From contig JABDAV010000008.1 in NCBI GenBank assembly GCA_013289015.1, positions 1-50,848 on the forward strand: 50,848 nucleotides of DNA, in the 5' to 3' direction. The translations under genes were made by a program, and so were the position numbers. This document shows, one piece after another, positions 11,154 through 26,318 of the stretch. Every line of letters begins with the position of its first letter. Positions within the stretch are counted from its first letter, which is position 1. Source of the DNA: Bacteroidota bacterium. GTDB lineage: Bacteria; Bacteroidota; Bacteroidia; Chitinophagales; Chitinophagaceae. The notes below the pieces were generated by a model. That model was not told the DNA's origin, made no database searches, and saw only the letters and a program-made list of their open reading frames with translations.

Positions 11154-11161
11154 TACATTTG
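11154..11161 (+). promoter_or_regulatory. -7 box (TACATTTG) of the SRP RNA gene
   Basis: TACATTTG lies 5 bases before the first base of the SRP RNA stem at 11166. This spacing fits initiation of the RNA from a Bacteroidetes -7 element. The -33 region carries only a TTTT-type element, a weaker match. Confidence 0.65.
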
Positions 11162-11165
11162 CGGC

Positions 11166-11259
11166 GGCAGGTCTTACACGACCAGCTCCTGCTGAACCCT
11201 CCCAGGGCCGGAAGGCAGCAAGAGTAGGTGGTTGAGCGGTGCGATGTAATCAGCCTGCC
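11166..11259 (+). ncRNA. ffs: Signal recognition particle RNA, small bacterial (4.5S) type
   Basis: The RNA folds into one long hairpin. The terminal stem pairs GGCAGG (11166) with CCTGCC (11254-11259), and the apical domain contains the invariant CCCAGGGCCGGAAGGCAGCA stretch with the GGAA tetraloop and asymmetric internal loop that binds the Ffh M domain. It is about 94 bases long with no Alu domain, the usual form outside Firmicutes. A -7 box sits at the right distance upstream, and eight T residues follow the terminal stem. Its protein partners Ffh (15273-16595) and FtsY (27836-28801) are also in this window. Confidence 0.97.
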
Positions 11260-11267
11260 TTTTTTTT
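11254..11267 (+). terminator. T-run terminating the SRP RNA gene
   Basis: Eight T residues at 11260-11267 follow immediately after the closing strand of the SRP RNA terminal stem, so the mature stem itself serves as the terminator hairpin. Confidence 0.7.
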
Positions 11268-18997: not shown

Positions 18998-19611
18998 ATT
19001 ATTTTTTTAGTTTAATGAAAGCGAATAATTATAAAACAAGATAAGAAGTTGTATTGTAAATACTTAACGTGCGTTCGGTTTAAGCATGAAGTAACCCTGA
19101 AAGGATTAAATTTGAATAGCCCCGTAGGAATTACGGGAGAATAAATGTGTAAAAGACATTGAACCACACAGGGGTTCAATTGATTGATCCTGATATTCAC
19201 GTTATTTAGTATGCGATAGTACAGGCCTGACTATACACCTGAGTACCTTTTGCCATGGAATTGACAGGAAGCTGATAGGGGTTTAGTATGGGGTGAGGTT
19301 ACTATAAGGTCTCTATAAGGTCTCTATAAGGTCTCTATAAGGTTACTATAAAGTCTCTATGAAAGTGAAGCAGAGTGGAAAGGATGTGTAGTTTTATACA
19401 GCTGTTTACAAACAGGATATTGTGGTATGTAAAATAAGTATAAAGCCCGGAATGGCAAAAAAAACGTTGGGGTGACGGCCTAACTTCGTATCGAAAAACA
19501 AACAGCATATTATTCAACAGGAATTCAAATTGCTTATCCAGAACTCACATTAATAAAGTATCGGGATGCATCATTATTTACAGAAAGCAGGTAAGAGAGG
19601 AGTTGTGGCTG
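18998..19611. other. 614-base spacer with a minisatellite and no credible gene
   Basis: Between the S74-domain gene and the LutB-like gene I see no frame with family features. An antisense-length frame at 19012-19200 has an amino-acid composition typical of chance. The main structure is the 11-bp tandem array at 19297-19362. The left part is the presumed 5' leader and promoter region of the S74-domain gene. Confidence 0.6.
19297..19362 (+). repeat. Six-unit 11-bp tandem array (GGTCTCTATAA)
   Basis: The units are GGTTACTATAA, GGTCTCTATAA three times, GGTTACTATAA and a degenerate AGTCTCTATGA. The period is exactly 11 bp with no spacers. The first and fifth units share the TA variant, suggesting duplication of blocks. 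No coding role is apparent. Confidence 0.93.
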
Positions 19612-24282: not shown

Positions 24283-25365
24283 TTATAAAACCTGCGCCTG
24301 TATTGCTTTTTTTTGAGTGAACTGGTGTATAAAGCGCGGGAACGCTTTTAGTTTTATTTCGTCATCAGTTAGCCAGTAACCGTTTGCATCCTGCAATTTT
24401 TCGGGTATTGTAAACAAATCAACACAAATAAAATATCCATGTATGAACCGGTGCGTGAGTGTTTGTTTTTTGGCGGCAATGATATAAATGCTTTTTACTT
24501 TTTCTATATTGAAATAAGTTTTAAGCCACGTATTTATTTTCTTTATATCCCATTCGGGATTAACTGTTGTTTCTTCGGGATAAAATTCGTGCAGGTTTTG
24601 CCAGATATCTTTTGCAGTGCGTTGTTGAACAAACTTTTTATGACCAATCGAAAAAATGAAATAAGAGAGCCATCTTTCTTTTTTTATAATGCTTTTTTGT
24701 TTTACCGGTAAAACAGCAACATTGCCTGAATTGAACGCGGTACAAGTTACTTTCATCGGGCAATGGTTGCACAAAGGCACAGGCTTGCAAACCGTGGCTC
24801 CGAAATCCATTATCGACTGGTTGTATTCACCCGGTTGTTTTTTATCTAAACATTCCTGCGCAAGCCGGGAAAAAAAATGTTTGCCTTCAGTAGAATCTAC
24901 CGGGATGTCAATTCCGAAATATCTTGAGAGCACACGCAATACATTTCCGTCAACAACAGCATAAGGCAGATCAAAACAAAAAGACGCAATTGCATTGGCG
25001 GTATAAGCCCCTATGCCTTTCAGCTTTAAAATAGCATCATATTCTGCAGGAAAATTGCCGGCATATTTTTCATTCACCGTTCTTGCAGTATGCAATAAAT
25101 TTTTGCAACGCGAATAATAGCCTAAGCCTTCCCACAGCTTAAAAACTTCTTCATCTTTTGCGTTCGCGAGCGCTGAAATATTTGGATATTGTTGTATGAA
25201 TCTCTCATAATAATTCCAGCCCTGTTCAACTCTTGTTTGTTGTAAAATGATCTCGCTTAACCAAACTTTGTATGCATCTTTTTCGCCTTTCCAGGGCATG
25301 GTTCTTTTATTTTCTTTACGATTCCATTTTAATAAAAGCTCCCTGAATTGTTTTTTATTCTTCAT
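24283..25365 (-). CDS. mutY: A/G-specific adenine glycosylase MutY
   Basis: The product is 360 residues from the ATG at 25365 (M-K-N-K-K-Q-F); an upstream start at 25413 would read into the minisatellite and is rejected. Visible are P-W-R/K-type D-A-Y-K-V-W-L-S-E-I-I-L-Q-Q-T-R-V, the helix-hairpin-helix L-K-G-I-G-A-Y-T-A-N-A-I with catalytic Asp in V-V-D-G-N-V-L-R, and the [4Fe-4S] loop C-K-P-V-P-L-C-N-H-C-P-M-K-V-T-C. The loop spacing is C-x5-C-x2-C-x5-C, one residue shorter at the first interval than the usual x6. A NUDIX-like C-terminal domain follows. It removes adenine mispaired with 8-oxoguanine. Confidence 0.95.
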   Translation of the reverse strand: MKNKKQFRELLLKWNRKENKRTMPWKGEKDAYKVWLSEIILQQTRVEQGWNYYERFIQQYPNISALANAKDEEVFKLWEGLGYYSRCKNLLHTARTVNEKYAGNFPAEYDAILKLKGIGAYTANAIASFCFDLPYAVVDGNVLRVLSRYFGIDIPVDSTEGKHFFSRLAQECLDKKQPGEYNQSIMDFGATVCKPVPLCNHCPMKVTCTAFNSGNVAVLPVKQKSIIKKERWLSYFIFSIGHKKFVQQRTAKDIWQNLHEFYPEETTVNPEWDIKKINTWLKTYFNIEKVKSIYIIAAKKQTLTHRFIHGYFICVDLFTIPEKLQDANGYWLTDDEIKLKAFPRFIHQFTQKKAIQAQVL

Positions 25366-25384
25366 ACAGCATAACTCTAATGGC

Positions 25385-25573
25385 AAAAGTATCTTTGTTG
25401 AGGCTAAAAGCATCTTCGCTGATGCTAAAAGTGTTTCCCTTCAAGCTAAAAGCATCTCCGTTCACACTGAAAGCGTCTTCGTTGATACTAAAAGTGTCTT
25501 CGTTCATGCTAAAAGTGTCTTCGTTGATACTGAAAGTGTCTTCGTTCATTCTAATAGCATCTCCGGAGATGCT
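25385..25573. repeat. Nine-unit 21-bp tandem array between mutY and an MBL-fold gene
   Basis: Nine contiguous 21-base units run without spacers, of the form AAAAGTGTCTTCGTTGATACT and variants such as AAAAGCATCTTCGCTGATGCT. The last unit contains an 18-bp perfect palindrome (AGCATCTCC/GGAGATGCT, 25556-25573). Because 21 is a multiple of three, several frames stay open on both strands and encode heptad repeats (K-V-S-S-L-I-L on plus, N-E-D-T-F-S-I on minus). The array ends 2 bases before the stop codon of the metallo-hydrolase gene (25575-25577). Confidence 0.95.
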
Positions 25574-25574
25574 T

Positions 25575-26318
25575 TTAACAATTCCTGCAGAATGGTGTTT
25601 TCACATCATGATAAAATAAAAAAGCCCAGCCTTCTTTAGCGCCTTCTTCCCACCATTGCCTGCGCAGTTCCATTGCCTTTTTGCCGTTAAAATCATATTT
25701 GGCAACAAAGCGGTGTTTCATTTGCTGCAATTGCGGCGCATCGTCTGCACCAAAAAAAATAATCTCATCGTTTTCTTTTATCCAAAAAACCTGGTGATGC
25801 GGGCTGTGAGCGCCGGTTATTTTATAATGAATGTATCCATCAATTATGCCTTCCGGCTCGTTTAAAAAAACCACCTGTGAATTGTGTTCAAGTATTGATA
25901 GCTCTTCTGTCATGAAAGATGGAAAGCCGGTATTCATCGCAAAATCAAATTCAGCTTGCTGTACATAATAAATCGCATTGGGAAACGAAAGATGATAATG
26001 CCCCAGTTTATCTTTATAGCTCACGCCGCCTGCATGATCTTTATGTAAATGCGAGAGTAAAACTTTTGTAACAGATTCAGGCTTTATGTTTTTCTCCAGC
26101 AGGTTTTTATGCAACTGCATCTGGCCGTTTTGCATAAACCCAAGGCCTGTATCAAGCAATAAAACATCTTTGTTGGTTATCACGATAAACGGCTGAACTT
26201 CTACCAGTAAACTTCCGGCGTTGCGTTGCTGCAAATCATCTTTATTAAGATCAAAAGGAACAAAAATTTTAGACTTGTCAATTGTAAAAACGCCCTCGCT
26301 TAGCGGAATTATCTGCAT
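25575..26318 (-). CDS. MBL-fold metallo-hydrolase
   Basis: The 247-residue protein has the metallo-beta-lactamase fold signature L-S-H-L-H-K-D-H-A-G-G (HxHxDH), preceded by L-L-L-D-T-G-L-G-F. Downstream metal ligands are in G-A-H-S-P-H-H-Q (His) and G-A-D-D-A-P (Asp), with a final His in F-Y-H-D-V. It is a cytoplasmic binuclear zinc hydrolase; the closest pattern is the group related to AHL lactonases and AttM-like enzymes, but the substrate is uncertain. The stop codon lies at the edge of the 21-bp tandem array. It is divergent from ribBA. Confidence 0.88.
   Translation of the reverse strand: MQIIPLSEGVFTIDKSKIFVPFDLNKDDLQQRNAGSLLVEVQPFIVITNKDVLLLDTGLGFMQNGQMQLHKNLLEKNIKPESVTKVLLSHLHKDHAGGVSYKDKLGHYHLSFPNAIYYVQQAEFDFAMNTGFPSFMTEELSILEHNSQVVFLNEPEGIIDGYIHYKITGAHSPHHQVFWIKENDEIIFFGADDAPQLQQMKHRFVAKYDFNGKKAMELRRQWWEEGAKEGWAFLFYHDVKTPFCRNC

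What the first reader, a model, noticed from the sequence alone, without database searches (positions are those of the whole stretch)
25385..25573. Nine-unit 21-bp minisatellite, open in several frames, ending in an 18-bp palindrome
Seen: units of 21 bases without spacers lie between the mutY start and the stop of an MBL-fold gene. Multiples of three keep heptad frames open on both strands, e.g. K-V-S-S-L-I-L on plus and N-E-D-T-F-S-I on minus. The final unit holds AGCATCTCC/GGAGATGCT. Inference: variable-number tandem repeat, possibly a protein-binding or transcript-processing site that separates the mutY-ssb-gldE-gldD operon from its neighbour, or by chance a source of new small proteins. 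A 21-bp period is about two helical turns.
Basis: partly seen in the sequence, partly recalled or inferred. Interest (0 to 1): 0.55.

Follow-up and report, generated by a model that had tools for sequence, protein, structure and literature searches.

The report
Period-locked 21-bp repeats between bacterial genes
A nine-copy 21-letter DNA repeat beside a DNA-repair gene turns out to be one of many repeats between genes in its bacterial family that share a length of 21 letters, about two turns of the DNA helix, but mostly not their sequence.

Summary
In detail: nine spacer-free 21-bp units at 25385-25573, the last holding an 18-bp palindrome (25556-25573). The array fills the gap between the stop of an MBL-fold gene and the conserved mutY start, both on the minus strand. 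In five of seven congeners mutY follows the MBL gene directly, without an array.

The larger result is a class. In 2.03 Mb sampled from nine genomes of the family, 28 of 56 intergenic periodic segments (segments at my own query's hits removed) have period 21, 42 or 63, against 0 of 8 genic ones; 20 of the 28 come from one genome. Unit sequences are mostly unrelated. At one junction (exonuclease-ligase) three congeners carry three different 21-bp arrays and four have none. As a class the units carry dyad symmetry, so the terminal palindrome is the best copy of a weak dyad in all nine units.

Coding is not general, no gene orientation is preferred, and Ku is not required. Best reading: period-locked quasi-palindromic minisatellites, made and replaced by hairpin-prone slippage where insertions are tolerated. 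Main rival: phased protein-binding arrays. Why 21 bp is open. My ten paper searches found no description of the class.

The parts
25385..25573 (.). Array of nine 21-bp units without spacers, + strand consensus AAAAGYRTCTYCGTTSATRCT
   Evidence: TRF and pattern match
25556..25573 (.). Perfect 18-bp palindrome in the ninth unit; the best copy of the dyad carried weakly by the other units
   Evidence: Sequence; first eight units pair at 37 of 72 positions on the same axis, 19.0 (sd 8.1) in column-permuted units, P 0.021
25355..25549 (-). 64-aa open frame of NEDTFS-type heptads running from the array past the mutY start; probably not a gene
   Evidence: no Pfam match; not shared by the congeners, which lack the array
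24283..25365 (-). mutY, start placed at the position shared with congeners; a longer frame begins inside the array at 25413
   Evidence: Pfam HhH-GPD
25575..26318 (-). MBL-fold hydrolase gene; its stop touches the array
   Evidence: Pfam Lactamase_B; present in 8 of 8 genomes of the genus

Best explanation
The array is one member of a class of intergenic minisatellites whose unit length is fixed near 21 bp while the unit sequence is largely free. Shown here: the period bias, the scarcity of unit sharing between loci, absence from genes in the sample, recurrence and replacement at the same junctions, and static dyad symmetry of the units. Inferred: an array starts from a local quasi-palindromic stretch, grows in 21-bp steps by strand slippage or template switching helped by hairpins, persists where 100-400 extra bases do no harm, and is later lost or overwritten by another. 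On this reading it has no dedicated function for mutY. What sets 21 bp (two turns of 10.5 bp) is not shown; a same-face constraint on the paired or protein-bound intermediate is a guess.
For: Period: 28 of 56 intergenic segments at lag 21, 42 or 63, 0 of 8 genic. Unrelated units: 19 of 1540 consensus pairs match at 16 or more of 21 positions, mostly families within one genome or orthologous arrays. Turnover: exonuclease-ligase junction, 3 of 7 congeners with different arrays; upstream of murD, 6 of 12. Dyads: mean pairing 0.637 against 0.530 permuted, 25 of 56 arrays above z 2. Gene orientation as in all gaps.
Against: Slippage alone has no known reason to prefer 21 bp. No excess of compensatory change within arrays. 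Dyads are weak or absent in many arrays, including a z of only 1.26 for this one when the axis is free. 20 of the 28 segments come from G226. No within-species variation was seen, because no strains were available.
Confidence: 0.5

Rival explanations
1. Phased binding arrays: dyads repeated every two helical turns place dimers of a DNA-binding or nucleoid protein side by side on one face, where they cooperate in bending, bridging or silencing. Recognition would be by shape, or by several different proteins.
For: 21 bp is two turns; off-periods in G226 such as 41, 43, 44, 83 and 85 stay near multiples of 21; dyad symmetry above the permuted null; some arrays look by eye like a conserved core with a variable spacer.
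Against: Most units are unrelated between loci, hard for a sequence-specific protein; arrays are absent from most orthologous junctions examined; no binding data.
Confidence: 0.25
2. RNA-level element: tandem hairpins in the transcript protect, process or terminate mRNA between cistrons.
For: Array RNA folds better than dinucleotide shuffles on both strands, z -3.35 and -4.66; tiled units of 17 unbiased arrays fold better than tiled shuffled units, mean z -1.1 and -1.2; 21 of 37 arrays lie between co-directional genes.
Against: The dinucleotide null destroys the repetition; 10 of 37 arrays lie between divergent genes and the split follows that of all gaps; no terminator-like site in the array; no Rfam match at gathering threshold at the array, and three hits far below it, to eukaryotic families.
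Confidence: 0.1
3. Coding: the array is a small gene, or keeps ribosomes moving between the MBL gene and mutY, with a heptad peptide.
For: A 64-aa frame starts 26 nt after the MBL stop and ends just past the mutY start; in 17 unbiased arrays 4.35 of 6 consensus frames are open against 3.72 in shuffled units, z 2.8.
Against: That null shuffles single letters and ignores dinucleotide bias; stops in 17 of 45 matches; 0 and 1 open frames in the two other arrays of the own genome; periods not divisible by three occur; no genic array of period 21 in the sample.
Confidence: 0.06
4. The 21-bp unit is three diverged heptamers, an extension of the 7-bp arrays.
For: Heptamer arrays are frequent in G226 and known elsewhere (PMC4679880, abstract and two sections read).
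Against: No similarity at lag 7 inside units: z -0.54 in 51 arrays, 0.77 in 17 unbiased arrays.
Confidence: 0.04

Closest known systems
BrickBuilt, a minisatellite inside a MITE of Porphyromonas gingivalis (PMC4596501; abstract and passages read)
   Same: Spacer-free short direct repeats, always intergenic, in Bacteroidota
   Different: 23-bp unit of one sequence family, 19 copies of the element in one strain, with leader, tail and inverted ends; here 21 bp, mostly unrelated units, and no leader or tail seen at this array
Intergenic heptamer arrays such as TAACTGA (PMC4679880; abstract, introduction and Bacteroidetes section read)
   Same: Intergenic tandem arrays, some in Bacteroidetes, where two of the species described have close relatives without obvious repeats at the same place
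   Different: 7-bp unit of one sequence, often just upstream of start codons; no lag-7 similarity in the 21-bp units
Prokaryotic satellites as surveyed by Subirana and Messeguer (PMC6749651; opening part, two sections and passages read)
   Same: Short tandem arrays, patchy between species
   Different: The parts read stress multiples of three, coding repeats and microsatellite-derived units; the words Bacteroid, Chitinophaga, 21 nt and 21-mer do not occur in the main text
Plasmid iterons (recalled, no call)
   Same: Direct repeats spaced about two helical turns
   Different: One set per replicon beside its initiator gene; here many unrelated sets on chromosomes

Membership tests
Minisatellite / tandem repeat | Head-to-tail copies of a unit of about 10-100 bp | tested here: met
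Minisatellite / tandem repeat | Copy number varies between strains (VNTR) | not testable with these tools
   One genome per species; between species the array is present in G000 and absent at this place in the seven other genomes of the genus
MITE-borne minisatellite (BrickBuilt-like) | One element dispersed at many loci | tested here: not met
   Outside the array the unit pattern gives 4 matches at 3 mismatches in the own genome, control 3
MITE-borne minisatellite (BrickBuilt-like) | Leader and tail with short inverted ends | tested here: inconclusive
   The array ends at the MBL stop and about 19 nt before mutY; no inverted ends seen by reading, no dedicated search
REP / BIME | Conserved palindromic unit found many times per genome | tested here: not met
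   Unit found only in this array in the own genome; palindrome perfect in one unit of nine
CRISPR array | Repeats separated by unique spacers | tested here: not met
   Units abut
Heptamer array | 7-bp period | tested here: not met
   TRF gives 21 and 63; no lag-7 signal in the class
Protein-coding repeat | Unit in frame inside a conserved gene | tested here: not met
   Array lies between genes; array ORFs without Pfam match; congeners lack it
Plasmid iteron set | Binding by a cognate initiator next to an origin | not tested

The most novel reading that the evidence does not exclude
Some genomes of this family contain an active, sequence-independent process with a two-helical-turn ruler that keeps writing and rewriting 21-bp dyad arrays into intergenic DNA, either by enzyme-driven amplification or because a nucleoid protein selects phased dyads by shape; the mutY array is one recent product.
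Probability: 0.3. Interest if true: 0.82.

Novelty: new variant of a known kind. Interest (0 to 1): 0.52.

Why it matters
The bacterial minisatellites I read about are one sequence family copied around, derived from microsatellites, or coding repeats. A class in which the length is fixed and the sequence is free points to a physical ruler in how repeats are born or in what binds them, and it offers natural replicates (same junction, different arrays) for testing this. It also warns annotators: such arrays create spurious open frames and shifted start codons, as here for mutY.

Tried and rejected
Spread of the window unit. BLAST of the array: 1 of 59 genomes, the own one. Unit pattern in the genus: five hits at up to 2 mismatches outside G000, in three of the seven congeners; no tandem array of unit 15 bp or more at them; four of the five were read and show no repeats, L020 was not read and has the same matched letters as L021. 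Relaxed exact pattern in 394 genomes: 6 with a match, only G000 with more than one, against 8 genomes with a hit to the reversed control; no array at the five other loci. Viral contigs: 0. The nearest units elsewhere are two arrays of G032: L199 matches at 16 of 21 consensus positions, and by eye parts of L195 look closer still. Whether this is kinship is unresolved.

Ku-dependent joining of staggered nicks as the 21-bp ruler: rejected as a requirement. Ku is in 13 of 27 genomes, but in 1 of 13 of the genus of G226, the richest sample.

Compensatory evolution: striking by eye in the murD and ligase arrays, but as a class not above three false pairing rules (mean maximum z 2.52 against 2.43, 2.51 and 2.59); not claimed.

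Strand composition of arrays in operons: purine 0.51, above 0.5 in 11 of 21; no bias. The first attempt to place orthologous gene starts was faulty and is replaced. The G005 counts at every lag look like an artefact of a run of N (my reading); N was excluded.

Papers: ten searches. Read in part: PMC6749651 (opening part, sections 8 and 9, passages), PMC4679880 (abstract, sections 3 and 12), PMC4060949 (passages), PMC4596501 (abstract, passages). All others were seen as listings with the start of the abstract, including those on quasipalindrome template switching (PMC7202029, PMC3820800). None that I saw describes 21-bp period-locked arrays in Chitinophagaceae; the library lacks most subscription journals.

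Full report
Observation. Nine 21-bp units without spacers lie at 25385-25573. TRF reports 77% matches and no indels over 25385-25554 and also reads the array at period 63. The mean pairwise difference between units is 0.25. The ninth unit holds a perfect 18-bp palindrome at 25556-25573. With the axis fixed by that palindrome, the other eight units pair at 37 of 72 positions, against 19.0 (sd 8.1) when unit columns are permuted, P 0.021. With the axis left free the array is not significant by itself (z 1.26). So the palindrome is best seen as the best copy of a weak dyad in every unit.

Setting. The array fills a 209-nt space between the stop of an MBL-fold gene (25575-25577, minus strand) and the conserved mutY start at 25365. 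In the five congeners where mutY follows directly (G001, G002, G003, G005, G006) no array was found; reading the junctions, the gap is 12 nt in G001, 13 in G002 and 15 in G005. In G004 and G007 no mutY frame was seen in the fetched flank, and no array there either. G002, the nearest by this gene (95% identity), differs at 37 of 94 fourfold sites in mutY and 32 of 74 in the MBL gene. That is time enough for units once alike to reach 0.25 after a gain on this lineage. Independent loss in all the others is possible but less simple.

Spread of the unit. No second array with this unit was found by BLAST in 59 genomes, by the unit pattern in the genus, by a relaxed pattern in 394 family genomes or in viral contigs. 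The nearest are two arrays in G032, with kinship unresolved.

A class appears. The heptad peptide as a query hit 21 of 294 family genomes, the own one included. Of the 29 foreign loci returned, 24 gave a TRF reading of 21, 42, 63 or 84 bp and 5 (L040, L044, L048, L056, L060) did not. This search favours 21-bp arrays by design. I therefore took 2.03 Mb from nine genomes, scored each lag from 9 to 69, and removed the 12 segments at the query's own hits. Of the 64 left, 56 are intergenic: 28 at lag 21, 42 or 63, 14 at lag 14 (heptamers), 4 at lag 11 and 10 at other lags. The 8 genic ones have lags 9, 18, 24, 33, 45 and 51. By genome the 28 are G226 20, G313 3, G001 2, and one each in G000, G212 and G032. 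Several genomes, G226 above all, were picked because they had hits, so these are not family means; G005, G011 and G024 gave none at 21, 42 or 63 in 120 kb each. In 451 kb of G000, TRF finds three arrays of period 21 with at least four copies: this one, L094 and the weak L085. L085 is missed by the lag scan.

Controls with the same scan. 68 named loci around mutY, 1.30 Mb, mostly Chitinophaga: none at 21, 42 or 63, four other intergenic segments (lags 11, 16, 22, 46). 331 kb from order-level relatives: one intergenic segment, at lag 64. 50 kb of E. coli K-12: none. The class is patchy even within the family.

Same length, different letters. Of 1540 pairs of unit consensus sequences from 56 arrays, 19 match at 16 or more positions, 0 in one shuffled set. 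Most are small families inside G226 or the murD orthologues; one is the window with G032. Off-periods in G226 include 41, 43, 44, 83 and 85, near multiples of 21 and not multiples of three. Units show no lag-7 similarity.

Turnover at fixed sites. Seven of eight genomes of the genus have the ligase gene. Three carry 21-bp arrays with quite different units just upstream (G000 purine-rich, G004 with TACATGGCAATGTA-type dyads, G005 built on CGGGAAAA and GGGGGAAA) and four have none; in G003 the upstream neighbour also differs. Upstream of murD in the genus of G226, 6 of 12 loci with upstream sequence carry arrays, some related and some not; the thirteenth locus lacks that flank. At a phytase-like gene 2 of 13 do, with unrelated units; several flanks are short. 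At lipA, only G000 of 7; there the scan reads lag 64, and G005 shows a weak lag-24 segment instead. G226 and G000 were the starting points of these comparisons and always count as positive.

Dyads. Over 56 arrays, which include those found by the query and the orthologous ones, the best dyad axis pairs 0.637 of positions on average. Column-permuted arrays give 0.530 and three false pairing rules 0.47-0.50; 25 of 56 arrays exceed z 2. Compensatory change within arrays is not in excess, so this symmetry may reflect how arrays arise rather than selection on pairing. Quasipalindromes are known template-switch hot spots in E. coli (PMC7202029, start of abstract seen).

Context. Of 37 arrays with two clear neighbours, 21 lie between co-directional, 10 between divergent and 6 between convergent genes; all gaps of 150-2000 nt divide 387, 149 and 84. 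In the co-directional cases the median distance to the upstream stop is 59 nt and to the next start 224 nt. This fits tolerance away from promoters better than a terminator, leader or insulator role.

Interpretation. I favour period-locked quasi-palindromic minisatellites that arise and are replaced by hairpin-assisted slippage in DNA where insertions are tolerated. The period bias, the scarcity of shared units, the turnover and the dyads are shown; slippage, neutrality and the reason for 21 bp are inferred. Phased binding arrays remain a serious rival. Limits: one genome per species, a simple gene finder of my own, one family, and a richest genome chosen by its hits.

Noticed in passing
window 19239-19398; also L091 6480-6610 and L103 6730-6895: An 11-bp array (TTATAGTAACC / TTATAGAGACC) inside a dispersed MITE-like element; the copies share leader and tail sequence by eye, with CTATACA- and TGTATAG-like ends at some of them. 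Resembles the P. gingivalis BrickBuilt layout with another unit.
   Followed up: partly
G226 sample, for example L072 10716-10798, L074 6610-6734, L076 4827-4926: Intergenic heptamer arrays of several sequences occur in the same genome as the 21-bp arrays.
   Followed up: no
L244 and L249, between the array and murD: In L244 the array is followed by a long inverted repeat (TTTCTCAGTGCCTCTGTGGCAA ... TTGCCACAGAGGCACTGAGAAA); L249 has a partly similar stretch at the same place.
   Followed up: no
L166 15113-15642 (Bacteroidaceae MAG): Two neighbouring intergenic arrays with lags 46 (0.98 identity) and 22.
   Followed up: no
window 11158-11264 (+): Small SRP RNA (Rfam RF04183, 87.3 bits), the only Rfam match of the window at gathering threshold.
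   Followed up: no
genus of G226: Ku is missing from 12 of 13 genomes of this genus but present in 12 of the 14 other family genomes searched.
   Followed up: no
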